Source of the DNA: an uncultured Burkholderiales bacterium
Lineage (GTDB): Bacteria > Pseudomonadota > Gammaproteobacteria > Burkholderiales > Burkholderiaceae
Assembly: GCA_946480465.1 (NCBI GenBank)
Contig: CAMLJY010000076.1
Coordinates: 1-24,955 of the forward strand
Direction: 5' to 3'
DNA: 24,955 nt
Below the pieces are notes generated by a model. It had not been told where the DNA came from. It saw nothing but the letters and a program-made list of their open reading frames with translations, and searched no databases. The translations under genes and the position numbers were made by a program. Shown piece after piece: positions 3 through 23,195 of the stretch (position 1 is the stretch's first letter; every line of letters starts with the position of its first letter).

Positions 3-305
3 CGTCCTCGACATCTGATCGAGTCCGTCAAGGACGGGGGTTCGCGGACAGTTACCGACGTCTTGCTGCAGGAGCGCGATTTCGAGCCGGCTGACCTGCG
101 CCGCGCAATCGAAGCGACGTTCCAGCGACGACAGACGGCGCTGCCCACAGGCGTACCCGCGGGGCTGAGCGACGCGTTTGCGGGCGACGTCAGCAAGCAG
201 GCCCAGTGGAAGGCCTTCCTCAAGAAGAACCGCCTCGACCCGACCGACTTCCCCGATCTCGTCACGCTGCTGCGATCCGGCCTGTATGCCGCAGGCGTCA
301 TCTGA
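3..305 (+). CDS. AbiEii/AbiGii-type nucleotidyltransferase toxin, C-terminal part (partial)
   Basis: The reading frame is open from the left edge to a TGA at 303-305, so the gene begins outside the window. The visible 100 residues resemble the C-terminal region of AbiEii/AbiGii-family (DUF1814) nucleotidyltransferases. These often end with a segment like AIRATFxRRxTPLP followed by a KQAQWxAFLxx stretch. Here the matching pieces are AIEATFQRRQTALP and SKQAQWKAFLKKNRL. Family members act as toxins of type IV-like toxin-antitoxin pairs, in which a nucleotidyltransferase is controlled by a DNA-binding antitoxin. The catalytic GGT and DxD motifs would lie upstream and cannot be checked. The 3' end overlaps the convergent primase-helicase gene by 8 nt. 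The family call rests on remembered similarity of the tail only. Confidence 0.6.
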   Translation, partial: RPRHLIESVKDGGSRTVTDVLLQERDFEPADLRRAIEATFQRRQTALPTGVPAGLSDAFAGDVSKQAQWKAFLKKNRLDPTDFPDLVTLLRSGLYAAGVI

Positions 306-2732
306 ACAGGTCCCCGGCGGGCATACGATCGTCGTCCACCATCCGGTATCCCATCGCGCGATAACCCACCTGCCGCTTGTTCCACATGCGCAGCAGCGCC
401 GGATGGCCACAATCCACGAAGTCGACGATGCGCACGTCGTCCTTGCCGGCGTGCTGCCGATGCAGGCGGCCCGCGTACTGCTGCAGCGTGCCCTTCCATG
501 AAATCGGCATGGCCAGCACCAGCGTATCCAGCGGCGGGTGATCGAAGCCCTCGCCCACCAGCTTGCCGGTCGCCAGCAGGATGCGAGGCGCTTCAGGCGG
601 CAGGGCTTGCAGGTCGGCCAACAGGGCTGCCCGCTGCTTGCGCGACATCCGCCCGTGCAGGCTGAGCGGTGCAGGTGTCGTGCCGTTCAGCGCGGCAGCG
701 ATGGCATCGAGGTGCTCTGTGCGCTCGGTCAGCACGAGCACCTTGCGTCCCGCCTCGACCACTGCGCGAACCTCTGCCGCGACAGCCTCGGTCCGAGCCG
801 CGTCGTTGGCCAGGAAGCGGAACACGTCCTGGATGCCCGCATCCGGCGGCAAGTCGATGCGGTCGAGCCGCTGCCGGGCCACCACTTCCAGGTCATGCGG
901 TGCGTCCGCCGGTCTTGTCGCGCTGTGGCGAATGGGACCGCACTGCATGAAGATGATCGGCTGCTGCCCGTCGCGACGAAGCGGCGTCGCCGTCAATCCG
1001 AGCACGAACTTCGCTCGCGCTCGCTTGAGGATGGCATCGAAGGACACCGCTCCCACGTGATGGCACTCGTCAACGATGATGTGGCCGTAGTTCTCGACGA
1101 GCGGATCGACCTCGCCTTGCCGCGAGACCGATTGCATGACCGCGATGTCGATCCTGCCGGTCGCCTTGCTCTTGCCACCACCGATCACGCCGACCAGGTC
1201 ACTGCCTGCGCTCCGGTTCACTTCCAGGAATGCCTTCAGGCGCTCCTGCCACTGCCGCAGCAGTTCGGTGCGGTGTACGAGCACGAGCGTGTTGACGCCT
1301 CTTCGCGCGATCATGGCGGCCGCGGTAACGGTCTTGCCGAACGCGGTAGGCGCGCAAAGGACACCGGCATCGTGGCGCAGCATGGCTGCGACTGCGGCGT
1401 CCTGGTCAGGACGCAGCGCACCGGCAAACGTGACGTCGAGCGGTTCGCCACAGGTGCGCTCGTCGCGCACATCGAGGCGAATCCCGCTGTCGCTCAACAG
1501 CGCTCTGGCCGCGTCGAGGCACCCGCGCGGAAGCGCAACGTGCAGCGGGTAGTTCTCTGCACAGCCGATGACGCGCGGCTTGTCCCACACCGAGAGCCGC
1601 ATGGCTTGGGCCTTGTAGAACTCCGGGTTCTGAAACGCCGCGAGACGAATCAGGCGGTTGGCCAGCGCTTGCGGCAGTTCGGACTTCTCGAAGTACAGGC
1701 CGTTGGCCAGCGTCATGGTCAGCGACTCGGGAAGCGGCCCTTGCAGCTTGCCTGACGCCGCCGCAGTGCGCTTCCACGGCGTCGCCAGGTCTTCGTCGTC
1801 GATGAAGGTGACATCCAGCGGATGCCCGCCGCTGGTCGCCCTCAGGATCGTCGGCTCGATGTCGTTCGGCGGCATCGGACGGATCGAAGCCAGGAACGCC
1901 CATTGGTCGGGGAACGGCTGTAGGTCGTCGTCGACGAACACGCTGTTTCCTCGCTCTCGCGGCGCCTTCTGCAGCGGCAGTGCAATGAGATTGCCGAAGC
2001 CGCCGACCCGTGAGCCCGCAGGGCCACGGCCCTGGCGGAAGGCATGGTGTCCTGGTTCGGAAAGAGCCTGTCGTACGACGCAAGCTTCAGCTGCCGGGTG
2101 CGCGCGCAGGTGTGGCTGATGATGGCCGTCCCCAGGCGACGCGCATCGCGTGCCGACACACGGGACGCGAAGAAGATCCAGGCGTGCGCGCCCTGCCCCG
2201 AGCGCGAGATCTCCACCGCCACCGGCACACCCAGCTCCCGGCACGACTGCGCGAAGGCACGAACGTCGTCCCGCCACTCGGCATCATCGAAGTCGACCGC
2301 CAGGAAGTGGCAGCTGTCGTCCTCCAGCAGCGGGTAGACGCCCACCGTGTGCTCGCCCGCCAGGTGGTCGTAGATCACCGAATCCGACAGCGGGACCAAC
2401 GACCGGTTGCCGCAGTCAGCGCACTTGATGCGCGGCTTCTCGCAGATGCCCGGTCGCCACTCGTTGGCACACGCGGGGCTGTAGCCCGACCTGCCCGACG
2501 TCTTGCTTTCCCACCGGATCGGGTAGACGTCAGTCCGTCCCCGGAAGAGCCGCCGGAACAGCGTGACCTTCTCCGCCGTTGTCAGCCTTGGCGGGTCCAC
2601 TTCCGTCGACTGCGTCGGAGCCGACGATGCCTTGCGCCGCCAGTCGATACCATGCGCCTCCAGCAGCGCGATCAGCCGGGCGTTTTCTGCGTGCAGCGCC
2701 GCGACGCCATCGGAGTCAGCCGCCCTGCCCAC
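298..2732 (-). pseudogene. TOTE-type primase-helicase (zinc ribbon, AEP primase, SF2 helicase), frameshifted
   Basis: Two overlapping minus-strand frames together make one protein of about 810 residues. The first (GTG start at 2732) carries a four-cysteine zinc ribbon (C88, C97, C104, C107). It then has an archaeo-eukaryotic primase core with the metal motif AVDFD (residues 145-149) and the SGQGAHAWIFF motif. After NQDTMP the frame is lost. The homologous continuation GGFGNLIALPLQ resumes in another frame at 2004 and runs through a superfamily 2 helicase. Its motifs are Walker A APTAFGKT, box II VDECHH, LTATP, and QYAGRLHRQHAG. This architecture matches the proteins called TOTE conflict-system primases, which are linked to mobile elements and conflict. 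The break coincides with a 36-nt segment (2005-2040) that relatives, as I remember them, lack. The GTG start lies inside the end of the upstream gene (17-nt overlap), suggesting translational coupling. A base-calling error could also explain the break. Confidence 0.8.
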
Positions 2733-3264: not shown

Positions 3265-3295
3265 GCCGGTTCCTGACCGTTCAACATCCTTGAAA

Positions 3296-3313: not shown

Positions 3314-3336
3314 CCCTTCATCGACATCGCTCCGAA

Positions 3337-3822: not shown

Positions 3823-3837
3823 TCCGCAGCGTCCAGA

Positions 3838-4762: not shown

Positions 4763-5372
4763 ACGTGCTTGGTGAGATCGCGCTTGTGTTGTGGATCGCA
4801 AGCTGTGCGGTCGCGAGCAGCATCGCAAGTGCTTCGCCCCCTCGTTGGACCACGGCGGAGCGCCGCTCATCCGCAACGCGCACCGGCAAGGCATCAGGAC
4901 ATGACTTGCTGCAAGTTCTTTGCCCCTCTTTACCCGCCGGGGCCGCTGTGGGTCCACTGGTCCGGCAACGCCGAGACCCCTTGATTCGGCGCGATCTGCG
5001 TGTGCAAAGCCAGCGCGCGGCCGGATGCTTGCGACATCGCCTCTCGCAGTGTCTGCGCCAGGATCTGCTCTGACTCTTGGCGCGCATCGGCAGGCCGCTG
5101 CTCGCCCTTGAGCCGGGCCGAGTCTTGGTCGTGTTCTGTGTACAGCAGGTCAAAGGCCGAGACCACAGGGGCGCGGTGGGCCTGTCCATCCGACTCGTCC
5201 AGCGACCATCCCCGCACCTTCGCCCCCCCGCGGTGACCGTCCCCACCCGATCCGGGGATTCGCAATGGGGGACGTTCCGCCTAACGTGCCCGCCGTTTTG
5301 CCTGCGCGTCCGCAGGATCTTCCTCGTCTGAAACTTGCTGGCCCATGCGGCCAGCGGCACTGGAGTTGCCCC
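4763..5372. other. Junction region with no convincing gene
   Basis: This stretch separates the presumed island end from the PEP-CTERM gene. It contains only the doubtful minus-strand ORF at 4930-5265 and a 7-bp hairpin at 5337-5355 (GCTGGCC, 5-nt loop, GGCCAGC) in the leader of the next gene. No RNA gene or clear promoter was recognised. The open frames have no family features I know. Decayed coding sequence is possible. Confidence 0.4.
4930..5265 (-). CDS. Doubtful small hypothetical protein
   Basis: An open frame of 111 codons ends with TAA at 4930-4932. The region from WSLDESDGQ onward is acidic and helix-prone, with EQRPADARQESEQILAQTL as a representative part. Its third codon positions are GC-rich but less so than in the confident genes nearby. 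No good ribosome binding site precedes the first ATG, the true start is unclear, and I recognise no domain. It could be a remnant of a longer gene or a chance frame in GC-rich DNA. Confidence 0.25.
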   Translation of the reverse strand: MRIPGSGGDGHRGGAKVRGWSLDESDGQAHRAPVVSAFDLLYTEHDQDSARLKGEQRPADARQESEQILAQTLREAMSQASGRALALHTQIAPNQGVSALPDQWTHSGPGG

Positions 5373-5993
5373 TTGATCAAACGTGCTATTGCTGCGTCCA
5401 TGCTCGCGGCCGGGATGGTGTCCGTCCAGGCGGCGGCGGTCTTCACGGATCGCGCCGCGTTCGAAGCGGCCCTGGCCGGCACCGTCGCCACTGAAACCTT
5501 CGACTGCGGCGGCTGCACCTTCTCGCACCTCGGTACCGGAACGATCAGCCACCACGGCGTGACCTACACCACCACCGGCGGCCACAACTTCCTGATCGGC
5601 ACCCACTACGGCCAGACGGTCAGCGGCACGGACTTCATGCAGGTCGAGAACAGCAACGCGACGCTGACCTTCGGCAGCGGCATCCGGGCGATCGGCATGG
5701 ACGTCGACAACCTGTTCACCGACTACACCTTCACCCTCAGCTTCGGCGGCGAATCGATCTCCGCCAGCAGCACCGCGGACGCGCACCGCTTCCTCGGCAT
5801 CATCGCCGACGATGCCTTCGCCGAGGCCACGCTCGCCACCACCGGCACCCTGGGCCTGCAGTTCGACAACCTGACCACCGCCACCGACGTCGCGCTGTCG
5901 GTGCCCGAACCCGGCAGTCTGGCGCTGGCACTGCCCTTGTTGGGCGCATTGGCCTTCAGCCGCCGCCGCTCGGCGAGCACCACCGCCCGCTAG
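5373..5993 (+). CDS. PEP-CTERM sorting domain protein
   Basis: I chose the TTG at 5373 because GGAG lies 7 nt upstream and the product then begins with an ideal signal peptide (MIKRAIAASMLAAGMVSVQA). The 206-residue protein ends with a PEP-CTERM tripartite signal: VPEP near residue 177, a hydrophobic segment (LALALPLLGALAF), and an arginine cluster (SRRRS). Proteins with this tail are exported, then processed by an exosortase and usually displayed at the cell surface or in exopolysaccharide. The mature part is rich in Gly, Thr, Ser and Phe and probably forms a beta-sandwich, as in many PEP-CTERM proteins. A CGGC pair (residues in DCGGCTF) could form a disulfide. No exosortase gene lies in the window, so its processing enzyme must be encoded elsewhere. 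Confidence 0.88.
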   Translation: MIKRAIAASMLAAGMVSVQAAAVFTDRAAFEAALAGTVATETFDCGGCTFSHLGTGTISHHGVTYTTTGGHNFLIGTHYGQTVSGTDFMQVENSNATLTFGSGIRAIGMDVDNLFTDYTFTLSFGGESISASSTADAHRFLGIIADDAFAEATLATTGTLGLQFDNLTTATDVALSVPEPGSLALALPLLGALAFSRRRSASTTAR

Positions 5994-7169: not shown

Positions 7170-9761
7170 TCACCCCTTCAGCCAGGGCGCCAGGGCCTTG
7201 GCCAGTTGCTGCAGCAGGGCAGGATCAGGCAACGGCAGCCGCAGGCTGGGCTCGCCAGTCTCCGGATCCCGTTCGATGCGCATGCGCGCCCCAGTGCCCT
7301 GCTGCTGTCGCTGCGCCGCCAGGCCCTGCAGCATCGCTGCGCCGGCCTGCAGCAGGTCGGACCAGGCGTCGGCAGCAAGTTGACCTGATGCCGCATCGGA
7401 GCCGGGGCCCGCGGGGCCTCCGGGACGCGCAGAGTCAGGCCCGGGGGCTGCGGCTGATCCGGGTGAGGAGTCGGCACCGGCCACGCCGCCGGCCCCGGGC
7501 GTGGTGTCCGCATCGCCGGCTGCGCCGGCGGTCAGCGGGGCATGGGCCGGCGAAGCGTCGGACTCCTGCCCGGCCGGTCCGGCAGCCGCCGGGCTCGCGT
7601 CATCCTCCCCTTCGTCCACTCCCATCGCCCCGGCCACCTGCTCCACGCTCTTCATGAAGCTGGACAGCCGCGTGCCTTGCAGGAAGACCTCGCCGGCGCC
7701 ACCATCGAGCACGCCGGCGAAGAGGCTCTTCTTGAAGGCGAGCACGCCCAGCATGCCCTCTTCGATGCTGCCTTGGCCGATGAAGTTGACGACCTGCACC
7801 CCGCGCGACTGGCCCATGCGGTGTACACGGCCGATGCGCTGCTCCAGCACCGCCGGGTTCCACGGCAGGTCCATGTTGACGACCATCGCCGCGGCATGCT
7901 GCAGGTTCAGGCCGACGCCGCCGGCGTCCGTGCTGAGGAAGATGCGGCATTCGGGGTCGGTGTGAAACCGCTCCACCAGCGCGCCGCGCTGCTCGCCCGG
8001 CACGCCGCCGTGGAACAGCACGTGACCCCAGGAGCGCGCCTTCAAACGCCGGACGATCAACTCGTGCGTGCCGAGCCACTGGCTGAACACCACCACCTTG
8101 GCCGCCGGGTCCTCCAGCCATTCGTCGAGCAGCGTGATCAGCTCGTCGGCCTTGTGGCCGTGGTCGGTCTCGTGGTCGAGCAGCCAGGTGCTGTTGCAGG
8201 CCATGCGCATGTTCTGCAGCGCGCACTGCAGGCGGCGCTGGTCCACGTCGGACAGGTAACCGGTCCGGCGCCAGCGCAAGACGATGCGGGAAACGATGAC
8301 GCCGTTCTCGTCATGGTGGACACGCTGTTCCGGCGTCAGCGGCACGAACAGGCGACTGTCCACGCGCTCGGGCAGCTGGCCCAGCACCTCGGCCTTGCGC
8401 CGGCGCAGCATCACCGGCGCCAGCGTCTCGCGGATGCGCTCGAGCGCGCGGTAGCCGATGACGCGGCCGGCCTCGTCGCGCGCCTGGTGCTCGTCCAGCA
8501 GCTTCCAGGTCGGGCCCAGCCGGTGCTGGTCGACGAACTGCACGATGGAGATCAGTTCCTCCAGCCGGTTCTCCAGCGGCGTGCCGGTCAGCACCAGGGC
8601 ATACGGGCTGGCGATGCGCTTGAGCGCGCGGGCCGCGATGGTGTCCCAGTTCTTGATGCGCTGCGCCTCGTCGGCGATCACCAGCTCCGGCGCCCAGGCG
8701 TCGATCAGGTCGGCGTCGCGCGCCAGCATCTCGTAGTTGACGATGCGGCAGAAGCTGTCCTCCGTGTACTGCGCCTGGCGCTGCGCGCGCAGGCCGTGGA
8801 TGACCTGCGCCGGGCGGTCGGCGAAGCGCGCGAACTCGGTCTTCCACTGGTGCTTCAGCGAAGTGGGGCAGACCACCAGCACGCGGCTGACGCCGAAATG
8901 GCGCGCCATCAGCTCGGCCGTGGCGATGGCCTGCACGGTCTTGCCCAGGCCCATCTCGTCGCCCAGCAGCGCCCGCCCGGCACGCGCGGCGAACAACGCG
9001 CCTTCGGCCTGGTAGGGGTAGAGGCGAGTCTTCAGCAGCTTGTGCAGCGCCTTGTCGCGCGCGCCCTTGGGGTAGGCCCGGGCCAGCACCTGCTGGCGCT
9101 GTTCGGCGTCGCGCACCTGGGCGATGAAGGCCCACACGTCGTCGCCGATGCGAAGTTCGTGGCCGGCGGCCTGCGCGGCGCGCGCCAGCGGGCCGACCTC
9201 ATCCAGCCGGCTCCACGGCAGGGTCCAGCCGGCCGCCGGATCGAAGCTCTGGCGTGCCCGCTTCAGCAGCGCCGGCGGGCAGGCCGTGCCCGGATGCAGG
9301 CGCACCTGCCGGGCGCCCAGGTAGTCGAGCCGGATCTCGCTGTACGGCGCCTGATGCCCGCGTGCCAGCGCCACCTTGCCGCCGCGGCGCGCCTGCAGCC
9401 GCGCCAGGGTGAATTCGATGTGCTTGCAGGTGCCAAGGTGGTTGGTGGCATGGTCGGGGCAAGTGCAGTGGTTGCTGCCCGGTTCCAGTCCGCGGATCGT
9501 CACGACGTACTGCGTGCCGCTGTCCGGGTTGTCGACGCGGAAGGTGGAGAACACCGGCTCGGTGCCCAGGTTGCGCAGGCTGAAGCCCTGCTCCCGGCCA
9601 AACTGGCGCCGCAAGGCGGCCTGCCAGTCCGGCACCGCCATGTCTTCCGGGCGGCGCGTGCGCGACAGGCGCGGTTCAGCCGCCTGGCGGGCAGTGGACT
9701 TGGCTTGTCGGGGCGAGGCTGTACGCATGGGCGCTCGGGCAGGTGAAACGGGATGCGGCAT
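7170..9761 (-). CDS. SWIM zinc-finger SNF2-family helicase/translocase downstream of jetD
   Basis: The protein of up to 863 residues has a SWIM zinc finger near the N-terminus (C99, C101, C112, H114). An SNF2 ATPase follows, with Walker A DEMGLGKT (268-275), box II DEAQ (364-367), LTGTPLENR (391-399), STDAGGVGLNL (610-620) and IGRVHRMGQ (643-651). Family members are ATP-driven double-stranded DNA translocases. Residues about 718-800 form a Gly/Ala/Pro/Asp-rich linker, and the last 60 residues form a separate small helical segment. Two starts are possible, at 9761 and 9728; neither has a strong ribosome binding site. The start lies 24 nt after the jetD stop on the same strand, so it looks co-transcribed with the Wadjet genes. 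It is not one of the four known Wadjet subunits. It could equally be a neighbour with its own unrelated DNA-repair role. Confidence 0.9.
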   Translation of the reverse strand: MPHPVSPARAPMRTASPRQAKSTARQAAEPRLSRTRRPEDMAVPDWQAALRRQFGREQGFSLRNLGTEPVFSTFRVDNPDSGTQYVVTIRGLEPGSNHCTCPDHATNHLGTCKHIEFTLARLQARRGGKVALARGHQAPYSEIRLDYLGARQVRLHPGTACPPALLKRARQSFDPAAGWTLPWSRLDEVGPLARAAQAAGHELRIGDDVWAFIAQVRDAEQRQQVLARAYPKGARDKALHKLLKTRLYPYQAEGALFAARAGRALLGDEMGLGKTVQAIATAELMARHFGVSRVLVVCPTSLKHQWKTEFARFADRPAQVIHGLRAQRQAQYTEDSFCRIVNYEMLARDADLIDAWAPELVIADEAQRIKNWDTIAARALKRIASPYALVLTGTPLENRLEELISIVQFVDQHRLGPTWKLLDEHQARDEAGRVIGYRALERIRETLAPVMLRRRKAEVLGQLPERVDSRLFVPLTPEQRVHHDENGVIVSRIVLRWRRTGYLSDVDQRRLQCALQNMRMACNSTWLLDHETDHGHKADELITLLDEWLEDPAAKVVVFSQWLGTHELIVRRLKARSWGHVLFHGGVPGEQRGALVERFHTDPECRIFLSTDAGGVGLNLQHAAAMVVNMDLPWNPAVLEQRIGRVHRMGQSRGVQVVNFIGQGSIEEGMLGVLAFKKSLFAGVLDGGAGEVFLQGTRLSSFMKSVEQVAGAMGVDEGEDDASPAAAGPAGQESDASPAHAPLTAGAAGDADTTPGAGGVAGADSSPGSAAAPGPDSARPGGPAGPGSDAASGQLAADAWSDLLQAGAAMLQGLAAQRQQQGTGARMRIERDPETGEPSLRLPLPDPALLQQLAKALAPWLKG

Positions 9762-9785
9762 TGTGGCCGCCGAGAGCCCCTCTGG

Positions 9786-11015
9786 TCAGGCCCGCGTCCG
9801 TGCCGCCACCGCCCCCGCCGCCCCCAGTGCGTGCACCGCCCGCTCGACCCAGCCGAAGCCGATGCGCTCCTGCTCCAGCCGCAGCGGTTCGTCGCGCAGG
9901 CGGCGCCAGCGCAGGTCGTCGTAGAGCCGGCGCTCGTCGTCGCCCAGGTGCGGCAGGTCGCGTTGGGTGGGTTGCGGCTCGCCCGTCCACTGGGCCTCGT
10001 GGGCCAGCATCGTGTCGCGATCCATCAGGAAAGACCGCACCTGCGGAAAATGCGCGCGCAGCTGGTCCAGGATGGCGAAGCCGTGGGTGTCGATGTCACC
10101 CCAGTAGTGCAGCTCACGCTGGCGCAGCCAGGCCGCCTGCGCCAGCGCATCGAAGCCATAGCCGGCGCCGAAGACCACCAGGCTGTCCGCCGCCGGCGGA
10201 AAGGCGAGGAAGTTGATCTCGTTCTCGGTGATGAAGACGCGCCTTTCCCGCGGCACCAACCGGGCGAAGGCGTCGTGCGTCAGCGTGTAGTCGGCGTCGG
10301 CGTCGGCGCCGGGCACCCAGGCCTCATGGTCCGGATCGAGAAAGCGCAGGCGCACCCGGGCCGGCTTGTCGCGAAAGCCGTAGCGGCGCGCGAATTGCGC
10401 CAGGCCGCTCACTTCGTTATCTATGACCTCGCCCGGCAGTGCCCGGTCCAGCAGCTCGGCCAGCACGCCACGCTGGGCCTCGATGAACTTGCTGTGGATG
10501 CCGGGCAGGTCCACCTGCCGCAGATAGATGCCGGGGCGCGGATGAGCCTGCAGCCAGGTGACCAGGTCCAGCAGCCGCGGCCAGTGATCGGCCAACGCCA
10601 GCGCACGCAGCGGCTGCGCTTGCAGCCACGGCAGCAGGGTAGGCTGCCGCTGCCGCGTGTCGTCCCGCAGGGCCTCGAAGCGGCGCGCGTCGCGCGCCTT
10701 GCCGATCAGCCGCAGCGCGTCGTCCAGCGTGTCCACCCAGGCCTCGGCCGGCAGGCTGTTGTGCCCGATGACGCGGTGCCGCACCTCGCGCAGCACCAGG
10801 CGGTAGCCGGCGCTTCCATCTTGCTGCAGCGCGGCCACCCAGGCGCGCACTGCATCGAAGCGCTCGGACAGCTCGCCCGATCCCGGCGCACGCAGGCTCA
10901 GGCGGCACGGGAACAGGCCGGACGGCGCGACGAGTTCGGCCAGCAACTCACCCTTGTCCCAGCGCCGCTGCACCTGGGCGCGCAGGTCCGCGGGCGTGGT
11001 CCACGTGCCGCTCAT
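9786..11015 (-). CDS. jetD: Wadjet JetD, Toprim-domain nuclease subunit
   Basis: The 409-residue protein has an N-terminal DUF3322-type region and a C-terminal DUF2220/Toprim-like domain. The Toprim motif is visible as ITENEINFLAF (acidic residues E264 and E266) and YWGDIDTHGF (D307 and D309), the residues expected to hold the metal ions. In characterised Wadjet systems JetD is the topoisomerase VI-like nuclease that cuts closed circular plasmid DNA after the SMC complex has extruded it. The frame is open upstream to 11486, but that part is antisense-like overlap with jetC. The ATG at 11015 overlaps the jetC stop as ATGA, which marks it as the start and implies translational coupling. All catalytic residues look present. 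Confidence 0.93.
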   Translation of the reverse strand: MSGTWTTPADLRAQVQRRWDKGELLAELVAPSGLFPCRLSLRAPGSGELSERFDAVRAWVAALQQDGSAGYRLVLREVRHRVIGHNSLPAEAWVDTLDDALRLIGKARDARRFEALRDDTRQRQPTLLPWLQAQPLRALALADHWPRLLDLVTWLQAHPRPGIYLRQVDLPGIHSKFIEAQRGVLAELLDRALPGEVIDNEVSGLAQFARRYGFRDKPARVRLRFLDPDHEAWVPGADADADYTLTHDAFARLVPRERRVFITENEINFLAFPPAADSLVVFGAGYGFDALAQAAWLRQRELHYWGDIDTHGFAILDQLRAHFPQVRSFLMDRDTMLAHEAQWTGEPQPTQRDLPHLGDDERRLYDDLRWRRLRDEPLRLEQERIGFGWVERAVHALGAAGAVAARTRA

Positions 11016-14000
11016 TGCAGTTCCGCGGGCGAGGCGCCTTCGTCCACCACCTGAATGCGCTGCGCCAGCTGCCCGGCCACGCCGCGCTGCGCGCGGTATT
11101 CCTCGATGCCCAGGTTGCGCAGCTTGGACGCGCTGCCGTCTTCGTTGTGCACGAAGCCGACGCTGGCCACGTAAGGCTCGATGATGTGGATCTTCTGCAG
11201 CGGGGTGACGATCAGCAGCTGCAGCTTCAGCTGCTCGAAGAGCCGCAAACCATACTCGGCCGATTCGTCCGACCCGCGGCCGAAGGCCTCGTCGATGACG
11301 ACGAAGCGGAACGAGCGCGAGCGCACAGCGCCCCATTCCAGCCCGAACTGGTAGGCCAGGCTCGCGGCCAGGATGGTGTAGGCCAGCTTCTCCTTCTGGC
11401 CGCCGGACTTGCCACCGGAGTCGGCGTAGTGCTCGTGCTCGCGGCCGTCCTCGCGCCAGCGTTCGCTGGCGGCGAACTGGAACCACTGCCGCACGTCGGT
11501 TACCTTGGCGGCCCAGCGGCGGTCGGCCTCGGCCGAACCCTGGCGGCCTCGGAAACGCTCGATGATCTGCCGCACCTGCAGGAACTTGGCCTCGGAGTAC
11601 TGCGCGTCGTCCGAGCCGGTCAGCGTGCCTTCGGTGCAGGCGCGCAGCTGGGTCTGGAAGTCGCGCACGTCGGCATCGGTGGCGGCTTGAGCCTCCAGCG
11701 CGATGTAGCGGCCAGCGTTGTAGTCGATCTGCGTCAGCGACTCGTTGATGCGCGCCACGCGTTCCTTGATGGTCTCGCGCTCGCGGTGCAGCTGCGACTG
11801 GAAGTGCGCCACCTCGCGGATGGTGTTCTCGTTCAACAGCTCCTTGAAGCGGGCCTCGAAGCGCGGCAGGTCGTCGGCCTGGAGCTGTTGCAGCATGCTG
11901 CGGTATTCATGCGCCGCCGCCACGCTGGCATCCACCTCCTGCGTCTCCAGCTTGTAGGCCTCCTTGTACTCGGCCATCGCGCGCACGATCTTCTCGGCCA
12001 GGCGGGCCTGGCGCTTGTCGTCGGCGTCGATGCGGCCCTGCAACCAGTCGCGCATCTCCTGCTGGCGGCCGTCGCAGGATTCGACGCTCAGCTGGCGTTC
12101 GCCCAGCGCCTCGGCGCGCCAGGCTTCGATGCATTCGAACTGCAGCTGATGGACCGCAAAGTCAGCGGCCTCCAGGCGCTGCTGCACCGCAGCCCGCAAG
12201 GCCACGGCCTGCTCCTGCTTCAGCTGCGCGCGGGCCTGCTCGGCTTCGCGGTCCTTCAGCTTGGCGCCGGTCGCGGCCAGCGCCGCCTCCAGGGCCGACA
12301 GCTGCGCCGCCAACGCCTTCAACACGTCGGAGGCCGTCTCCAGCCGCTGCTTCTCGTCCTGCAGCGCGGCCAGTTCGGTGGCACTGCTGCGCCAGTCCAG
12401 CTCGGCGAAGTCGCGGTACTCCTCCAGCTTGTCCAGCGCCTGCAGCCGCTCGCGCACCTGCTGCTGTTCCTTCTGCAGCGCGGCGATGCGCTGGCCGGTG
12501 TCCGCCAGGCGCGCCTGCAGCACGCGGGCCTTGGCCTCCAGCGCGGCGATCTTGGCGTGGTTGCTCCAGCCCAGCACGTAGCGGCTGCGATCGTCGATGC
12601 GATGGCGGTCGTCCTTCTCGTGGCGCTCGCCCAGGCCCTTGATCTGGCCGGCGCGGGTGATGGCGCGGGTCTCGCGGCGGAACTGGTCCTGGCTGCTGCA
12701 GCAGGCCAGGTCGAAGCGGTGAGCCAGCTCGCGTTCCAGCCAGGCGTAGAACAGCGAGTCGGGCTTGATGGCGAGCTTGCGCGCCATTGAATCCGGATGC
12801 AGCGCCGGCAGCTCGCCGCGGGCATCGCCGCGGCGCGCAGGCCGCACGCGGAAGTAGACCAGCCGCCCCTTCAGCTGCGTGCGGTCCACCCAGTCGCTGA
12901 CCGCCGCGTAGTGCACATCGGGCACCAGCAGCGACAGGCCGAAGCTGCGCAGCAGCCGCTCGGCGGCGCCTTCCCAATCGCGTTCCTCGTCACGCACCTG
13001 GATCAGCTCGCCGGCGTAGGGCATGGCCGCCTCGTCCAGCTTCAAGGCCTCGCACAGCGCGCTGCGCAGGGCCACCTGCTGCGCGTCGATGTTGCTGCGG
13101 CGGGCCTTCAGGCTGAGCACTTCCTGCGTTAACTCCGCGTGCTCCTGCCGGCCCTGGGCGAAGGCCACGCCCAGCTCGTTGAGCTCGTTCTGCAGCTCGG
13201 CCTCGCGCTGGGCCGCGGCCTCGCGCATCGGCACGCACAGCGCGCGCTGGGCCAGGAAGTCCTCCGCCTGGTGCACCGACAGCAGACCCAGCGCCTGCCG
13301 CAGCGCGTCGTAGCGGGCCGCCTTGTCGGCGCGCCGCTGCTTCTCGCTCTCCTTGCGCGCGATCTCCAGCGCCAGGCGCTCCAGGCGGTCGCCGCCGCTG
13401 TCGGCGATGGTGCGGCGCAGCTCGCGTTCCTGCACCTGCTGCTCGCGCTGCTGGGCTTCCAGCCGCTGGATGTGGCCGGCGTGGCGCGCCAGTTCTTCGG
13501 CCAGGTGCTGCAGGCGCTGGTCAAGCAGGCCGGCCTTGTGCACCGCGAAGAAGGACTGCAGCGCCTCGCGCGCCGCGCGCTGCTGCTCGATGGCCGCGGC
13601 CAGCTCGGCATGGCGTTCGGCATCGGCCACCAGCGGCTGCAGCAGGGCCACCTGGGCCTTGGCCTTCAGCACCGCCTCGTGCGCGCGGTTCAGGTCGTCG
13701 AAGTGCGCGATCAGCGCGGCCAGGCGCGGCGCCACGTCGAAAGGCTCGAGCATGTGGCTGCGCACGAAGTCGGTCAGGTTGCCCACCGACTTCATCGACA
13801 CGGTCTGGTGGAACAGCTCCAGCGCCTGCTCGTTCTGGATGCCGAAGAGACGGCGGAACAGCGCGCCGTACGGCGGGAAGCTGTCTTCCACCACCGCGCC
13901 GCGGGCGCGCAGGCGCTTGCGCAGCTTGGCGATGTCGGTGCCGAAATCGGCGAAGTCGCCGGCGATGCCCAGTTCCTTCTCGGCCACCGCGTACAGGCGC

Positions 14001-14449
14001 AGCGGCTGGCCGGCCGGGTCCTTCAGCCAGAACACCTGGGCCAGGGTCACCGTCTGGTCATATCCGGCGTTATGGAAGACGGCCAGGATCACCGAGTAGC
14101 TGTCCGGCCCGCGCAGCGCCACCGGCTTGCCGCTGCCGCCGGCATCGCTGCGCGCGGCCTTGTAGTGGCCCAGCACGTAGCTGCGCAGGCTGCGCTCGCG
14201 CGCCTCGGCGCCGGCGGCCTTGTTGTAGGCCACGCGGTGCGCGGGCACCAGCAGCGTGGTCATCGCGTCCACCAGCGTGGACTTGCCGGAGCCGATGTCA
14301 CCGGTCAGCAGCGCGTTGCGGCCGTCGGCGCGCAGCGTCCAGACGCGGCCGTCGAAGGTGCCCCAGTTGAAGACCTCCAGGCGTTGCAGGCGGAAACCGG
14401 ACAGGCTGTCGTCGGCGCCGAAGTCCAGCGCCATCGGTTCATGCTTCAT
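11012..14449 (-). CDS. jetC: Wadjet JetC, SMC-like ATPase
   Basis: The 1145-residue protein has the layout of an SMC/MukB-like ATPase. It has an N-terminal head with Walker A GDIGSGKST (residues 50-58), a long central region rich in Glu, Gln, Arg, Leu and Ala with coiled-coil character, and a C-terminal head. The C-terminal head has the signature SGGQKEK (about 1015) and Walker B FRFVVIDEAFGRGSDES (about 1048). JetC is the motor of the Wadjet complex, a MukBEF-like loop-extruding machine that recognises small circular DNA. The start at 14449 is supported by GGAGG 8 nt upstream and sits 11 nt inside the end of jetB. The frame continues upstream to 14527, but that would overlap jetB by about 90 nt. 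The gene looks intact. Confidence 0.95.
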   Translation of the reverse strand: MKHEPMALDFGADDSLSGFRLQRLEVFNWGTFDGRVWTLRADGRNALLTGDIGSGKSTLVDAMTTLLVPAHRVAYNKAAGAEARERSLRSYVLGHYKAARSDAGGSGKPVALRGPDSYSVILAVFHNAGYDQTVTLAQVFWLKDPAGQPLRLYAVAEKELGIAGDFADFGTDIAKLRKRLRARGAVVEDSFPPYGALFRRLFGIQNEQALELFHQTVSMKSVGNLTDFVRSHMLEPFDVAPRLAALIAHFDDLNRAHEAVLKAKAQVALLQPLVADAERHAELAAAIEQQRAAREALQSFFAVHKAGLLDQRLQHLAEELARHAGHIQRLEAQQREQQVQERELRRTIADSGGDRLERLALEIARKESEKQRRADKAARYDALRQALGLLSVHQAEDFLAQRALCVPMREAAAQREAELQNELNELGVAFAQGRQEHAELTQEVLSLKARRSNIDAQQVALRSALCEALKLDEAAMPYAGELIQVRDEERDWEGAAERLLRSFGLSLLVPDVHYAAVSDWVDRTQLKGRLVYFRVRPARRGDARGELPALHPDSMARKLAIKPDSLFYAWLERELAHRFDLACCSSQDQFRRETRAITRAGQIKGLGERHEKDDRHRIDDRSRYVLGWSNHAKIAALEAKARVLQARLADTGQRIAALQKEQQQVRERLQALDKLEEYRDFAELDWRSSATELAALQDEKQRLETASDVLKALAAQLSALEAALAATGAKLKDREAEQARAQLKQEQAVALRAAVQQRLEAADFAVHQLQFECIEAWRAEALGERQLSVESCDGRQQEMRDWLQGRIDADDKRQARLAEKIVRAMAEYKEAYKLETQEVDASVAAAHEYRSMLQQLQADDLPRFEARFKELLNENTIREVAHFQSQLHRERETIKERVARINESLTQIDYNAGRYIALEAQAATDADVRDFQTQLRACTEGTLTGSDDAQYSEAKFLQVRQIIERFRGRQGSAEADRRWAAKVTDVRQWFQFAASERWREDGREHEHYADSGGKSGGQKEKLAYTILAASLAYQFGLEWGAVRSRSFRFVVIDEAFGRGSDESAEYGLRLFEQLKLQLLIVTPLQKIHIIEPYVASVGFVHNEDGSASKLRNLGIEEYRAQRGVAGQLAQRIQVVDEGASPAELQ

Positions 14450-15074
14450 CGGCCGGTCCTCCCTCGCCCACCAGCTGCGCGCGGTAGACAGCCAGGCGCG
14501 CGTCGAACTCGCCCAGCCATTGCGCATCGACGAAGGCCTTCAGGATGCGCTGCACCTCGAACATGCCGTCCTGGCCGCGCAGCTTGCGCACGAAACCCAG
14601 GTCGATGACGCGATTCAGGTGCGCGTCCACCTGGTCGATCAGGCGCGCCTCGTTGCTGCCCTCGGGCATGAAGACGCGCAGCATCTCGGCCACCTGCTCG
14701 CGCGACAGGATCAGCCGCGTGTCGCCGCCCGCGGCATCGAACTCGGCCAGCTTCTTGCGCAGCAGCGCCAGCAGCAAGCTAACCGCAAAAGACAGCGGCC
14801 GCCGCACCACCAGGCGGGGCAACGCGGCGGCGGGATCGCCTTCGGCCACGGGGCGCGAACGCAGGAAGGCGTAGCCCTCGGCCTCGTCGATCATCAGCTC
14901 CAGCCCCAGCACCGCCACGTGGTCGCGCACGCGGCCCTGCAGCTGCAGCAGCGCGCTCCAGCGCAGGGCATCGTCGTCGCGGTAGAGCACGCCCTTCAGC
15001 AGCGGGACCAGCACCGCCGGTAGCTCGGCCACGGCCTCCGCCGGCGCGTTCAGCACGTCATCATTCATCGTCAT
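14439..15074 (-). CDS. jetB: Wadjet JetB, KITE-like subunit
   Basis: The 211-residue protein corresponds to the DUF4194 (MukE/MksE-like, KITE) subunit of Wadjet, which uses winged-helix domains to bind the kleisin and DNA. Visible features are the PAVLVPLLKGVLYRDDD opening, LELMIDEAEGYAFLRSR, and SREQVAEMLRVFMPEGSNEA. The LGFVRKL(R)GQDGMFEVQRILKAFV tail is typical of the family. The start at 15074 forms an ATGA overlap with the jetA stop; a second in-frame ATG at 15068 is also possible. No strong ribosome binding site is seen, which fits translational coupling to jetA. The 3' end overlaps jetC by 11 nt. Confidence 0.92.
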   Translation of the reverse strand: MTMNDDVLNAPAEAVAELPAVLVPLLKGVLYRDDDALRWSALLQLQGRVRDHVAVLGLELMIDEAEGYAFLRSRPVAEGDPAAALPRLVVRRPLSFAVSLLLALLRKKLAEFDAAGGDTRLILSREQVAEMLRVFMPEGSNEARLIDQVDAHLNRVIDLGFVRKLRGQDGMFEVQRILKAFVDAQWLGEFDARLAVYRAQLVGEGGPADEA

Positions 15075-16531
15075 CTCGAAAAGATCACCCGCGGCAGCCG
15101 CGCCGACTTGCGCCGGCCGTCTGGCGCCACCCAGCTCACCTGCTCCTCCACCGCATCGTCGATGGCCGCGCGCAGGCCTGTTGCGGCGCCGGGCGCTTCG
15201 GACGCCAGGCTGAAGTAAGCGATCAGCTCGGCCAGTCCCTGCTGCAAGGGCCGCGCGGCCAGCAGTTCGGCCAGCGTCACCTGCGTGCGCTGCTGCAGGC
15301 TTTGCCGCACGTGGCGCGCCAGGGCCGCCTTGTCGACGACGAACTGGCCGTAGAGCGCGGCGGCGTCCAGGTCCTCGTCGCCCGTGGCGATGGCCGCGCT
15401 GCGGATGGCCGCCTTGTGCGCCGGCGCGTGCAGCGGGCGCTCCATCGGCAGCTCGATCGTCGGCGCGGTCTCGTCGATGGCCATGAACTCGCCTGCCGGC
15501 TGCTGCGTGCGCACCGCCAGCGCACCCGCCTCGATCCCGCGCAGGATGTCCATGATGCGGCGGTTCTCGAGGAAGGCCTGGTCGTCCAGGAAGCGGCGCA
15601 ACTGCTGCGACAGCAGGGCCACCGTGCGCTGCGTCTGCTCGCCGGCCTCCAGCCAGTCGTAGTGCACGCGGCGCAGGCGCGGGTCGGGCGACTGGGCCGC
15701 CACCGGGTCCAGCTGCAACACGCGGTCGAGCAGGCCGGTGAGTTCCTCCTGCCGGTCGCGCGACATCAGGAAGTCCCAGAACGCACGGAAGCTGCGACCC
15801 TGGTCGGACTCCTCGATCAGGTCGCGCTCGCCCAGGATTTCCTGCAGCAGCGCGCCCTTGCGGCCGTCCCACAGCGCGATGCGCTCGCGCACCCGCCGGT
15901 CCAGGCCGCGGAAGTTGTGTTCCACCTCGCGGAAGTCCGCCAGCAGCTCGCGCGCCAGCGACACGAACTGCGCGAAGCGCTCCTTCAGCGCGGTGTCGCC
16001 CAGCAGCGGCAGGTCGCCGGAGCGCACGCGCTCGATCTCGTCGTCGATGGCCTGGCGCCGGCGCAGCAGCTCCTGCACGCGCACCTCGGGATCGGTCTCG
16101 CTGCCCTCGCCCATCTGGCGCAGCAGCTCGAACAGGGTCAGCAGGCGCGATTCGGTGCCGACGAAGCTGCGCTCGCCCAGGCTGAGCAGCCACGACAGCG
16201 CGCGCTCGGTGGCGGGGGTCAGGTCGAAGTGCGGCTCGTCCGAGCCAGGTGGGTAGAACTTGCGCAGCCAGCCCTTGTCATTGGCCGCCCAATCGTTCAA
16301 GTATTCGAGCGCCGGCTTCGGAAAGCTGCCGGTGCCGCGCTGCTCGCGCACGGCGTACAGGGTGTCGTCCAGCGCGGCGGCCAGTTCGGCCTGGTGAATG
16401 GCGCGGCGATTGGGCAGCACGAACACGCGGTGCAGGAAGCTCGCCACCAAGGGGGCGGAATCGGCCAGCAGCAAGCGCCACGCCGGGTGCTGGCGACGCA
16501 AGGCGTCGAGGGTGTCGAGGTCGAGGGACAT
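15071..16531 (-). CDS. jetA: Wadjet JetA, kleisin-like subunit
   Basis: The 486-residue protein matches DUF3375, the MukF/MksF-like kleisin of type I Wadjet. It opens with the typical LDTLDALRRQHPAWRLLLAD and carries FLHRVFVLPNRR, DFLMSRDRQEEL and FLENRRIMDILRGIE further in. JetA bridges the JetC heads and recruits JetB. I chose the ATG at 16531 because it starts with the conserved family sequence; in-frame ATGs at 16552 and 16591 have no better ribosome binding site. It is the first gene of the jetABCD unit. A possible -10 element (TATGCT on the minus strand, 16587-16592) lies upstream without a clear -35. Confidence 0.93.
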   Translation of the reverse strand: MSLDLDTLDALRRQHPAWRLLLADSAPLVASFLHRVFVLPNRRAIHQAELAAALDDTLYAVREQRGTGSFPKPALEYLNDWAANDKGWLRKFYPPGSDEPHFDLTPATERALSWLLSLGERSFVGTESRLLTLFELLRQMGEGSETDPEVRVQELLRRRQAIDDEIERVRSGDLPLLGDTALKERFAQFVSLARELLADFREVEHNFRGLDRRVRERIALWDGRKGALLQEILGERDLIEESDQGRSFRAFWDFLMSRDRQEELTGLLDRVLQLDPVAAQSPDPRLRRVHYDWLEAGEQTQRTVALLSQQLRRFLDDQAFLENRRIMDILRGIEAGALAVRTQQPAGEFMAIDETAPTIELPMERPLHAPAHKAAIRSAAIATGDEDLDAAALYGQFVVDKAALARHVRQSLQQRTQVTLAELLAARPLQQGLAELIAYFSLASEAPGAATGLRAAIDDAVEEQVSWVAPDGRRKSARLPRVIFSR

Positions 16532-17681: not shown

Positions 17682-18716
17682 TCAATGGTTGCCAGCCGGC
17701 GCTGGTGCCGGCACAGGCGCCAGCAGCGTCTGCGCCAGGAAGGCGATGAACTCGTCGTAGCGCTGCTGCAGCAGGTACAGCGTGTCGTGCGGGTCGACGC
17801 CAGCCGGCGTCTGCACGATCAGCGGCTGGCCGTGGGCGCACCGGCTACCCATGCGCGCGCAGGCCTCGATGGACTGCTGCGGCGGCACCAGCGTGTCATC
17901 GGCGCCGTGGATGAAGAGCGTGGGCGCGGCCGAGATGTTCACGCTGAGATAACTCGTTGGCGACGCGTCCTTGCGCTGCTGCTCTGTCGGCTCGCCGCCA
18001 AACAGGTTGCGCAGGATGCCGGGCACGCTGGGGTGCGGCAGCGCGGCCGTGCTGGCCAGGTTCCACGGCCCGGCGATGGACACCACGGCGTTGGGCCGGC
18101 TGTACACATCGCCGGCCTGCAGGCCCGGCCGCGGTATCAGGGGGCGCTCGTCCAGCACGCCCAGCATGCCCGCCAGGTGGCCGCCCGCCGAGGCCCCCAC
18201 CACCGCGATGCGGTGGCGGTCGACCAGCAGCGCATCGGCGTGCGTGCGCAGCTGCCACATGAGATTGCGCAGGTCGCTGATTTGCCGCCCGTAAGGCTGC
18301 CGGTTCCCGGGCAGGCCCAGGTCGTCGCTGGGGGCGGTGGCGGCACTGCAGCCATCTCGCTCGCCCGGGGAGGCGATGCGGCCGTCGACGCCCAGCACCG
18401 CATCGGTGACGGGCGCCAGACGGTACGACACCGTGACGGCCACCACGCCGTAGGCCTCGGCCAGGTGTTGGGGCCAGCCCAGGAAGGCGTCGCGGTTGCC
18501 GCAGGTCCAGCCGCCGCCGTGCACGAAGACGACCGCCGGCCGCCGATCGCCATAGGGTGAGGTGGCGCTGGTGTAGACGTCGGCCTTCAGCGGCACGCCA
18601 TTGACGTGGGCGTAGGTGTAGGTGGCCTTTTGGACGACGGGCTGGGCAGCGGCTGGCCCCGCTGCCACGGTCCCGAGGACGGCGGAGGCGATCGCCAGCA
18701 GCGCGCGCATGCTCAT
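17682..18716 (-). CDS. Exported alpha/beta hydrolase (esterase family)
   Basis: The 344-residue protein begins with a signal peptide ([20 protein letters not shown], cleavage likely after the AAA near residue 24), so it should act in the periplasm or outside. It has the oxyanion-hole motif HGGGW (66-70), nucleophile elbow GASAG with S176, a probable acid at D274 ([10 protein letters not shown]), and H310 in DPHDTLY. This is the complete triad of an esterase or carboxylesterase-like hydrolase. The substrate cannot be told from sequence. The ATG at 18716 overlaps the purL stop codon as ATGA, and the frame upstream of that is purL antiframe rather than gene. The tail is Pro/Ala-rich (PVPAPAPAG). 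Confidence 0.88.
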
Positions 18717-21700
18717 CCCACCCACTTGCGAGCGTTGGCGAACATGCGCATCCAGGGGCTGCGCGCCGACACGTCGCCCGAGGTCCAGCTCATCAGCACG
18801 TTGCGGAACACGCGCTCGGGGTGCGGCATCAGCGCGGTGAAGCGGCCGTCGGGCGTGGTGACGGCGGTCAGGCCATCGGGACTGCCGTTCGGGTTGGCAG
18901 GGTAGGTCTCGGTCGGCCGGCCGGCGGAGTCGACGTAGCGCATGGCGCGGTGCACGCGCTGCGCGTCGCCACGCTGCGAAAAGTCGGCGAAGCCTTCGCC
19001 GTGCGCCACCGCGATGGGCAGGCGGCTGCCGGCCATGCCGGCGAAGAAGATCGAAGGCGAATCCAGCACTTCCACCTGGCTCAGCCGCGCCTCGAACTGC
19101 TCGCTCTTGTTGCGGGTGAACTTGGGCCAGGCCTGCGCGCCGGGAATCATCGGCGACAGCGCTGCCATCATCTGGCAGCCGTTGCACACGCCGAGCGCGA
19201 AGGTGTCCTGACGCGCAAAGAACGCGGCAAACTGCTCGGCCAGCGCCGGGTTGAAGAGGATGGAGCGCGCCCAGCCCTCGCCCGCGCCCAACGTGTCGCC
19301 ATAGCTGAAGCCGCCGCAGGCGACGAAGCCCTGGAACTGGTCGAAGCGCGCGCGGCCGGCCTGCAGGTCGCTCATGTGCACGTCGAAGGTCTCGAAGCCC
19401 GCCTGCGCCATCGCGTAGCTCATCTCCACGTGCGAGTTCACGCCCTGCTCGCGCAGGATCGCGAGCTTGCGCCTAGCGGTGTTCACGAAGGGCGCGGCCA
19501 CGTCCTCGGCCGGGTCGAACGTGAGCTGCAAGTGCAGGCCGGTGTCGCCGTCGGCCCCCACGCCGGCGTGTTCGCTGTCGGCGCAGGCGGGGTTGTCGCG
19601 CTGGCGGGCGATGCGCCAGCTGACCTCGTCCCAGGCCTGCTGCAGCGTGGTGACGGGCGCGCTGAACTGCACCTTGGTGTCGCGGTAGACCTCGACGACG
19701 CGGCGGTCGTTGGTCACGCCGATGACGTGGCTGTGCTTGCTGAGCCCGTGCGAGCGCAGCACCGCCATCACCGCGTCGCGGTCGGCACGCTTCACCTGGA
19801 TCACCGCGCCCAACTCCTCGTTGAACAGCGCCTTCAGCGTCAGCTCGTTGCGGCGCTCGCCGACCTGGCCGGCCCAGTTCTTCGAATCGCCGAACTCGGC
19901 GCGGCTGTCGCTGATGCCGTCGCCTTCGGTGACCAGCAGGTCCACGTTCAGGCTGACGCCGAGCTGGCCGGCAAACGCCATTTCGCACACCGCCGCCCAC
20001 AGGCCGCCGTCGCTGCGGTCGTGGTAGGCGAGCAGCTTGCCTTCGCCGCGCAGCTGGTTGATGGCGGCGACCAGGGCCTTCAGCTGCGTAGGGTCGTCCA
20101 GGTCCGGCACGCCGTCTTTGTCATGGCTGCCGAACTGGTTCAACACCTGCGCCAGCATCGAGCCGGCCATGCGGTTCTTGCCCTGACCCAGGTCGACGAG
20201 GATCAGCGTCGTCTCGCCGGGCTGCAGCTGTGGCGTCAGCGTGCCGCGCACGTCGGCCAGCGTGGCGAAGGCGCTGACGATCAGGCTGACCGGGGCGGTG
20301 ACCTGCTTCGCCTCGCCGTTGGGTGCGGTCCAGCGGGTGCGCATCGACAAGGAATCCTTGCCGACCGGAATGCCGATGTTCAGCGCCGGGCACAGCTCCA
20401 TGCCCACGGCGCGCACGGTCTCGTACAGCGCGGCGTCTTCTCCGGGCTCGCCGCAGGCGGCCATCCAGTTGGCGCTGAGCTTGACCCGCGGCAGCTCGAT
20501 GGGCGCGGCCAGCAGGTTGGTGACGGCCTCGCCCACCGCCATGCGGCCCGAGGCCGGTGCGTCCAGCGAAGCCAGCGGCGTGCGCTCGCCCATGGCCATC
20601 GCCTCCCCACGGAAGCCGGCGAAGTCGGCCAGGGTCACCGCGCAGTCGGCCACCGGCACCTGCCAGGGGCCGACCATCTGGTCGCGGTGGTTCAAGCCGC
20701 CCACGGTGCGGTCGCCGATGGTGACGAGGAAGCGCTTGCTGGCCACGGTGGGATGGCGCAGCACGCTGACGGCCGCTTCGTCCAGCGACACGCCGGTCAG
20801 GTTCAGCGGCGCTTCGCCGCGCGCCACGCGCTTGACGTCGCGCTGCATCTTCGGCGGCTTGCCCAGCAGCACTTCCATCGGCATGTCGATGGGGCAGTCA
20901 TGGTGCCCCCGGTCGCCGGGTACAGCGGCCATCCCCCGAGGGGGCGCCGAGCCGGCTTGGGGCGGCCCGGCACTCGGCTCGGCGGCACCACCGGCGCTGT
21001 CGAACAGCACCAGGTCCGGCTCATCCGTCGCGGTGCCGACGATCGCGAACGGGCAGCGCTCACGCTCGCACATCTGCTCGAAGAGCGGCAGCAGGTCCGG
21101 GTCCAGCGCCAGGACGTAGCGTTCCTGGCTCTCGTTGCACCAGATTTCCTTGGGCGCGAGGCCGCTCTCTTCGAGCGGTACTTTGCGCAGGTCGAAGCGC
21201 GCACCCTTGCCGGCGCCGTCGACCAGCTCGGGGAAGGCATTGCTGATGCCGCCCGCACCCACGTCATGGATGGCGAGGATGGGGTTCTTGTCGCCCAGGG
21301 CCCAGCAGTGGTTGATGACTTCCTGCGCGCGGCGCTGGATCTCGGGGTTGCCGCGCTGCACCGAGTCGAAATCGAGCGCCGCGGTGTTGGTGCCCGCGGC
21401 CATCGAACTGGCCGCGCCGCCGCCCATGCCGATGCGCATGCCGGGGCCGCCCAGCTGAACCAGCAGCGTGCCGGCGCCGAAGGGCCGCTTGTGCGTCTGC
21501 CCGGCATCGATGCTGCCGATGCCGCCGGCGATCATGATGGGCTTGTGGTAGCCGCGCTGCACGCCGGCCACCTGCTGCTCGTAGACGCGGAAGTAGCCGC
21601 CCAGGTTGGGCCGACCGAACTCGTTGTTGAACGCGGCGCCGCCCAGCGGGCCCTCGGTCATGATTTGCAGGGGGCTGGCGATGTGCTCGGGCTTGCCGAT

Positions 21701-22801: not shown

Positions 22802-22833
22802 GCTGGATGGGCGACGGCTGGGGGAAACCCGGG

Positions 22834-22839: not shown

Positions 22840-22887
22840 GGGACCCCACCCGCCCGGGCCCCCGACCCGCCACCCCGCGGACGGGCG

Positions 22888-23187: not shown

Positions 23188-23195
23188 CCCGCCCC

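What the first reader, a model, noticed from the sequence alone, without database searches (positions are those of the whole stretch)
7170..16531. SWIM-SNF2 helicase as a fifth gene of a type I Wadjet operon
The helicase start is 24 nt from the jetD stop, on the same strand and in the same tight pattern as jetABCD (overlaps of 4, 11 and 4 nt). Known type I Wadjet has only a kleisin, a KITE, an SMC-like ATPase and a Toprim nuclease. A dsDNA translocase could clear proteins from the plasmid, help process cut DNA, or extend the target range. If the link recurs across genomes it would define an undescribed Wadjet variant; if not, it is a chance neighbour.
Basis: partly seen in the sequence, partly recalled or inferred. 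Interest (0 to 1): 0.7.

Follow-up and report, generated by a model that had tools for sequence, protein, structure and literature searches.

The report
Wadjet operon with added DNA translocase
A DNA-walking motor gene sits in the same run of genes as a bacterial plasmid-destroying machine, and the pairing turns up in several separate branches of bacteria, which hints that the motor helps the machine finish its job.

Summary

Of 80 helicase loci, 6 adjoin type I Wadjet, 7 adjoin type II and 8 lie beside an AEP-TOTE primase-helicase; 59 show none of these. Type I and type II links each need at least 4 changes (gains or losses) on the tree. Five type II contacts overlap by 1-4 nt. Between the window and L001-L003, DNA similarity begins at jetA and ends at the helicase stop.

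But 0 of 37 unselected type I loci, 1 of 4 informative unselected type II loci, and 0 of 4 unselected helicases show the pairing.

So this is an optional, mobile companion of several systems, not a type-I subunit. Best mechanism: it clears proteins from DNA that Wadjet extrudes. That is inferred. No paper describing the pairing was found in the open-licence library.

The parts
15071..16531 (-). jetA1, kleisin-like (DUF3375), 486 aa
   Evidence: Pfam 7.6e-159, PADLOC JetA1 1.2e-219; start checked
14439..15074 (-). jetB1, KITE-like (DUF4194/MksE), 211 aa; 4-nt overlap with jetA
11012..14449 (-). jetC1, SMC-like ATPase, 1145 aa; 11-nt overlap with jetB
   Evidence: P-loop and Walker B domains, PADLOC JetC1 E=0; PDB JetC chains 8dk2 and 8as8
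9786..11015 (-). jetD1, Toprim-type nuclease (DUF3322 + JetD_C), 409 aa; 4-nt overlap with jetC
7170..9761 (-). SWIM-SNF2 translocase ORF, 863 aa (852 aa from the likelier start near 9728): SWIM about 99-114, SNF2 core about 240-690, low-confidence linker about 676-796, conserved C-terminal module about 800-861
   Evidence: relatives
298..2732 (-). AEP-TOTE primase-helicase homologue, 4.4 kb downstream of the translocase, split over two overlapping ORFs (298-2277 and 1842-2732) in different frames
   Evidence: PF22548 in both ORFs, helicase domains in the first; 71% DNA match to the TOTE gene of L002

Best explanation
The gene encodes an accessory double-stranded-DNA translocase that works on the same DNA as Wadjet. 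JetABC extrudes the plasmid as a loop and JetD cuts when extrusion is complete. The SWIM-SNF2 motor most likely removes or shifts DNA-bound proteins ahead of the extruder, so that it can go all the way round crowded plasmids. It is an interchangeable module: the same protein architecture joins type I Wadjet, type II Wadjet and TOTE primase-helicases, and often stands alone. Shown: domains, intact motifs, operon-like contacts, recurrence in separate branches and both gene orders, a five-gene block. Inferred: co-transcription, translocase activity, clearing of obstacles, and that Wadjet is what benefits. I put about 0.6 on a real functional link with Wadjet of any kind and about 0.4 on this mechanism.
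For: Adjacent to type I in 6 of 80 and type II in 7 of 80 helicase loci. Random placement predicts about 0.006 and 0.0002; if 4 cases of each are taken as independent and defence islands are assumed to raise the odds 100-fold, P is still about 0.003 (type I) and 6e-9 (type II). Type I and II labels each need at least 4 changes on starred branches of the helicase tree, and both gene orders occur in each type. Overlaps of 1-4 nt with type II genes: jetD2-hel in L046, L049 and L051, hel-jetA2 in L022 and L165. The window and L001-L003 are 83-85% identical just inside jetA and 76-77% over the last 200 nt of the helicase, and at the random baseline (0.59-0.67) outside; L046/L049 behave likewise for type II. 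Nearest solved sequence: an SNF2/Rad54-family helicase, 8.4e-51; fold matches are mostly nucleosome and RNA-polymerase remodellers. PMC12647877 (passages): Wadjet-I bypasses some obstacles through its hinge, while a Wadjet-II lacking the hinge channel was bypass-incompetent; an outside remodeller would help most there, in line with the type II excess.
Against: 0 of 37 unselected type I loci carry it; 3 of 4 informative unselected type II loci lack it; none of 4 unselected helicases adjoins Wadjet. 59 of 80 helicase loci show neither type I/II Wadjet nor TOTE, so the protein has a life of its own. The tree counts changes, which may be losses as well as gains. PMC12647877 (passages) describes JET, purified as JetABC plus JetD, cleaving naked circles, and proposes that the longer arms of Wadjet-II let it thread larger obstacles, which would lessen the need for a remodeller. 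No experiment shows translocation or interaction. The C-terminal module is present in stand-alone copies too, so no part specific to Wadjet-linked copies was found. The model is of middling confidence and its TM-scores to solved chains are low (query-normalised 0.24-0.46 in the 50 rows shown).
Confidence: 0.42

Rival explanations
1. The helicase is an independent defence (or general DNA-maintenance) gene that moves among islands. Wadjet and TOTE are frequent neighbours because all are defence cargo; shared transcription is convenience, not joint action.
For: 59 of 80 loci lack type I/II Wadjet and TOTE. Among 98 of their neighbours scanned, some are other defence-like genes (PDC-S01 4, REase_III 2, AbiEii 2, Avs2 1; 25 of 36 matching families were shown) and others housekeeping. 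Unselected Wadjet loci mostly lack it.
Against: In the families shown, restriction-modification genes, which are commoner than type II Wadjet (general knowledge), were seen less often beside it than Wadjet. Overlapping start and stop codons in both gene orders and the five-gene block suggest more than shared residence.
Confidence: 0.38
2. The translocase acts after JetD: it processes the linearised plasmid, removes JET or end-bound proteins from the break, or feeds ends to host nucleases.
For: In the window, L001-L003, L052, L016, L046, L049 and L051 the gene follows jetD; SNF2 motors remodel DNA-bound proteins (general knowledge).
Against: The helicase comes first in L040, L062, L022 and L165; no nuclease domain was called in it.
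Confidence: 0.12
3. Chance neighbour in this genome.
For: Unselected type I loci lack it (0 of 37).
Against: Kept in L001-L003 with differing flanks and found beside Wadjet elsewhere on the tree; far above random placement.
Confidence: 0.03

Closest known systems
Wadjet type I (jetABCD)
   Same: All four core genes, order and family matches
   Different: A SWIM-SNF2 gene follows in the same run; the described system has four genes (PMC9252829 and PMC10586767, passages)
Wadjet type II (DUF2398; DUF3323/DUF2399 jetABCD)
   Same: The same helicase family lies next to it on the same strand in L016, L022, L046, L049, L051 and L165, and near it on the other strand in L058 and L074
   Different: The window's own core is type I
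SWIM-associated SWI2/SNF2 ATPases (SsoRad54-like)
   Same: Motor core and SWIM motif; a passage of PMC5512222 says they are widely present in mobile systems and phages
   Different: That passage does not link them with Wadjet; the family here has its own conserved C-terminal module
SNF2 proteins of other defence systems (DISARM DrmD, Zorya ZorD, DpdE, BREX BrxH)
   Same: Shared SNF2 core; ZorD 8qy7 among the fold matches (rank 32)
   Different: NCBIfam scores fall far below the cut-offs for DrmD, DpdE, ZorD and RapA; BrxH was matched only in PADLOC, which gives no cut-off
AEP-TOTE primase-helicase genes (PF22548)
   Same: Match ends within about 100 nt upstream of the helicase in 7 of 80 loci, about 2 kb away in L075
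   Different: Not a Wadjet gene; 1 of 16 unselected TOTE loci has the helicase (L174, the same locus as L057)

Membership tests
Wadjet type I | JetA with DUF3375 | tested here: met
   7.6e-159
Wadjet type I | JetB with DUF4194 | tested here: met
   3.4e-45
Wadjet type I | JetC SMC-like ATPase with ATP-binding domains | tested here: met
   AAA_29 1.3e-24, SbcC_Walker_B 5.2e-25; JetC PDB chains
Wadjet type I | JetD with DUF3322 and JetD_C | tested here: met
   2.1e-58 and 7e-53
Wadjet type I | Contiguous jetABCD in one operon-like run | tested here: met
   4, 11 and 4 nt overlaps
Wadjet type I | Restricts plasmids by cutting circular DNA | not testable with these tools
   Needs an assay
SNF2-family dsDNA translocase | SNF2 N and C domains with Walker A and DEA[QH] box | tested here: met
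   Pfam; motifs in 79 of 79 sequences tested
SNF2-family dsDNA translocase | ATP-driven translocation on dsDNA | not testable with these tools
   Inferred from family
SWIM-containing protein | CxC...CxH zinc motif | tested here: met
   Pattern in 79 of 79, four ligands invariant in 42 rows; but Pfam reported no SWIM match at E 0.001
DrmD / DpdE / ZorD / RapA | Score over the curated family cut-off | tested here: not met
   158 vs 610, 121 vs 500, 112.8 vs 1500, 80.4 vs 576 bits
Obligate Wadjet subunit | Present in most Wadjet loci | tested here: not met
   0 of 37 type I, 1 of 4 informative type II unselected loci

The most novel reading that the evidence does not exclude
One translocase family serves as a plug-in remodeller for several DNA-surveillance machines (type I and II Wadjet, TOTE primases), stripping proteins from foreign DNA so that the machine can scan or extrude it fully. 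It would be a chromatin-remodeller-like partner of a loop-extruding SMC complex in bacterial defence, needed most where the SMC hinge cannot bypass obstacles (type II).
Probability: 0.3. Interest if true: 0.82.

Novelty: new variant of a known kind. Interest (0 to 1): 0.6.

Why it matters
How loop-extruding SMC machines deal with proteins on DNA is an open question, recently studied with Wadjet itself (PMC12647877, passages). A natural cassette that adds a remodeller-type motor to Wadjet, in several branches and two Wadjet types, gives a direct genetic and biochemical handle on it. It also adds a candidate accessory gene for defence annotation and a reason to look for the same motor beside other DNA-scanning systems.

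Tried and rejected
Rejected: that the helicase marks type I Wadjet generally (0 of 37); that it is a known SNF2 defence protein (below cut-offs); that it is common plasmid cargo (945 of 72,556 plasmid records match, none over 80% of the query, all under 60% identity). A pattern-based scan of viral contigs found no relative. A chance neighbour is held unlikely.

Led nowhere or limited: neighbour clustering mixes real genes with shadow frames, so it was used only to pick candidates. Of 165 neighbours listed for the 59 loci without Wadjet/TOTE, 98 were scanned, and the answers showed 25 of 36 PADLOC and 25 of 107 Pfam families. Type III Wadjet was not searched for otherwise. Only L046 (type II) and L057 (TOTE) proteins were scanned with family models; the other loci were typed by similarity to them. 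The tree (quick method) dropped L045 and L072, whose ORF came out short. The motif VI pattern matched 53 of 79 and is not relied on. Start codons are rough; one search replaces them for 18 of the 20 contacts it lists (none printed for L040 and L056). The 80 loci are the best 80 of 268 relatives by similarity to the window's gene, so they are neither random nor independent; the type II frequency used pools three partly overlapping samples. Paper searches found no description of the pairing; passages of ten papers were looked at, the rest were listings only.
Full report
WHAT IS THERE. The minus strand of the window carries a complete type I Wadjet operon, jetA (15071-16531), jetB (14439-15074), jetC (11012-14449), jetD (9786-11015), followed by a SWIM-SNF2 ORF (7170-9761). 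Overlaps within jetABCD are 4, 11 and 4 nt. The next in-frame ATG, 57 nt after jetD, has counterparts 51, 51, 50 and 57 nt after jetD in L001, L002, L003 and L052. No sigma-70-like promoter was found around the junction; the one terminator-like match lies inside jetD.

THE PROTEIN. It has a SNF2 N domain and Helicase_C and a CxC..CxH SWIM motif that Pfam did not call; SWIM, GxGKT and DEA[QH] patterns occur in 79 of 79 sequences tested. A 42-sequence model (mean pLDDT 72.9, pTM 0.64) shows a folded N-terminal part and motor, a low-confidence linker (676-796) and a small C-terminal helix-strand-strand-helix module (about 801-861) seen across the family. The nearest solved sequence is the SNF2/Rad54-family helicase 1z63 (8.4e-51). 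Fold matches are mostly chromatin and polymerase remodellers, with ZorD at rank 32; TM-scores are low. It is not DrmD, DpdE, ZorD or RapA by curated cut-offs.

HELICASE-CENTRED SURVEY. 268 stretches in the genome collection encode a relative; the best 80 were kept. Type I Wadjet adjoins 6 of 80: L001, L002, L003, L052 (jet first) and L040, L062 (helicase first). A neighbour in L046 proved to be type II Wadjet by JetB2/C2/D2 models; by similarity to it, type II adjoins 7 of 80: L016, L046, L049, L051 (jet first), L022 (helicase first), L058 (divergent, about 1.07 kb) and L074 (convergent, about 0.18 kb). An AEP-TOTE primase-helicase (typed in L057) precedes the helicase in 8 of 80 (L042, L056, L057, L059, L061, L070, L073, L075), about 2 kb away in L075. 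59 of 80 show none of these. 59 of 80 loci have at least 1.5 kb on both sides and 77 on at least one, so some absences may be contig ends.

OPERON-LIKE CONTACTS. jetD2 and the helicase overlap by 4 nt (L046, L049) or 1-4 nt (L051); helicase and jetA2 overlap by 1-4 nt in L022 and 4 nt in L165 (sequences). TOTE-helicase gaps are 1, 15, 15, 15 and 68 nt in L057, L059, L070, L073 and L061, and a 4-nt overlap in L042; none was listed for L056, where the TOTE match ends about 75 nt before the helicase. Looser contacts: L016 (296 nt), L062 (104 or 140 nt) and L040 (about 500 nt).

RECURRENCE AND CHANCE. On the helicase tree type I, type II and TOTE labels each need at least 4 changes on starred branches; changes may be gains or losses, and the labels are somewhat clustered (as few changes in 20, 42 and 7 of 500 shuffles for type I, type II and TOTE). 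Type I JetA occurs in 51 of 399 genomes of the order, seed included; type II JetB in 2 of 399, 2 of 368 (seed excluded) and 1 of 397 (centre excluded). Random placement within 1.1 kb predicts about 0.006 type I and 0.0002 type II neighbours among 80. With an assumed 100-fold island clustering and 4 cases taken as independent, P is about 0.003 and 6e-9. Even having type II Wadjet anywhere in the genome is expected for only 0.34 of 80.

FIVE-GENE BLOCK. DNA similarity between the window and L001, L002, L003 runs from the jetA start to the helicase stop. In 200-nt steps it is 83-85% just inside jetA and 76-77% over the last 200 nt of the helicase; the step before that, in the variable linker, gives 40-67%; outside both ends it is at the random baseline of about 0.6. 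L002 and L003 differ from each other on both sides, while L001 and L003 share the upstream flank (94%) and differ downstream. L046 and L049 (type II) also lose similarity at both ends; other type II pairs are too diverged at jetA2 to tell.

THE REVERSE VIEW, WHICH TELLS AGAINST A FIXED SUBUNIT. 52 regions around the JetA1 hits, from the 50 genomes over the cut-off other than the seed G003, were fetched. 42 hold jetA, jetC and jetD, 37 of them with at least 1 kb beyond jetD; none has the helicase. Unselected type II loci: L165 (G545) has it; L164, L166 and L171 do not; L163 ends at the contig edge; so 1 of 4 informative. Unselected helicases: 5 of 150 genomes of the order at family-level scores including the seed, plus one 38%-identity relative. 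Of the other four, none has Wadjet nearby and one (L169) has a partial TOTE gene. Two of those four genomes (G041, G112) hold type I JetA on another contig. TOTE: 22 of 270 genomes over the cut-off; of 16 regions fetched out of 27 places listed, 1 has the helicase, L174, the same locus as L057.

MECHANISM. Passages of PMC12647877 say that Wadjet-I extrudes a circle and cuts when extrusion is complete, that its hinge lets some obstacles be bypassed, and that a Wadjet-II without a hinge channel is bypass-incompetent and cuts at the obstacle. A dsDNA motor that removes bound proteins would help most there; the excess of type II partners fits. The same paper proposes that longer arms partly compensate in Wadjet-II, which tells against a need for a remodeller. 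All of this is inference: neither translocation nor interaction has been tested. The main rival is an independent defence gene sharing islands. Against a purely post-cleavage role, the helicase comes first in L040, L062, L022 and L165.

NOVELTY. Searches for Wadjet with SNF2, SWIM domain, accessory gene, additional gene or JetE gave no description of the pairing in the listings or in the passages looked at; only open-licence papers are held. PMC5512222 (passage) already notes SWIM-SNF2 ATPases in mobile systems and phages, so the protein kind is known; the recurrent Wadjet pairing appears new.

Noticed in passing
window 298-2732 (-): AEP-TOTE primase-helicase homologue 4.4 kb downstream of the translocase, in two overlapping ORFs in different frames; L002 also has a TOTE gene, about 3.4 kb after its helicase.
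   Followed up: partly
window 3295-4506 (+): HTH gene followed by an AbiEii nucleotidyltransferase gene, possibly a toxin-antitoxin pair, between the TOTE gene and the translocase.
   Followed up: no
window 5265-5993 (+): PEP-CTERM protein gene.
   Followed up: no
L042, L057, L059, L061, L070, L073: Helicase and AEP-TOTE primase genes in tight tandem (4-nt overlap to 68 nt), a recurrent pair of its own.
   Followed up: partly
L043 1111-2370 (+) and other helicase neighbours: AAA_14/DUF4143 (PADLOC candidate PDC-S01) genes: 4 of 98 helicase neighbours scanned.
   Followed up: no
plasmid collection: No plasmid record carries this helicase at 60% identity or more, although more distant SNF2 helicases match in 945 of 72,556 records.
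   Followed up: no
window 18713-23362 (-): The long ORF upstream of the jet operon reads like purL (phosphoribosylformylglycinamidine synthase); recognised by eye, not scanned.
   Followed up: no
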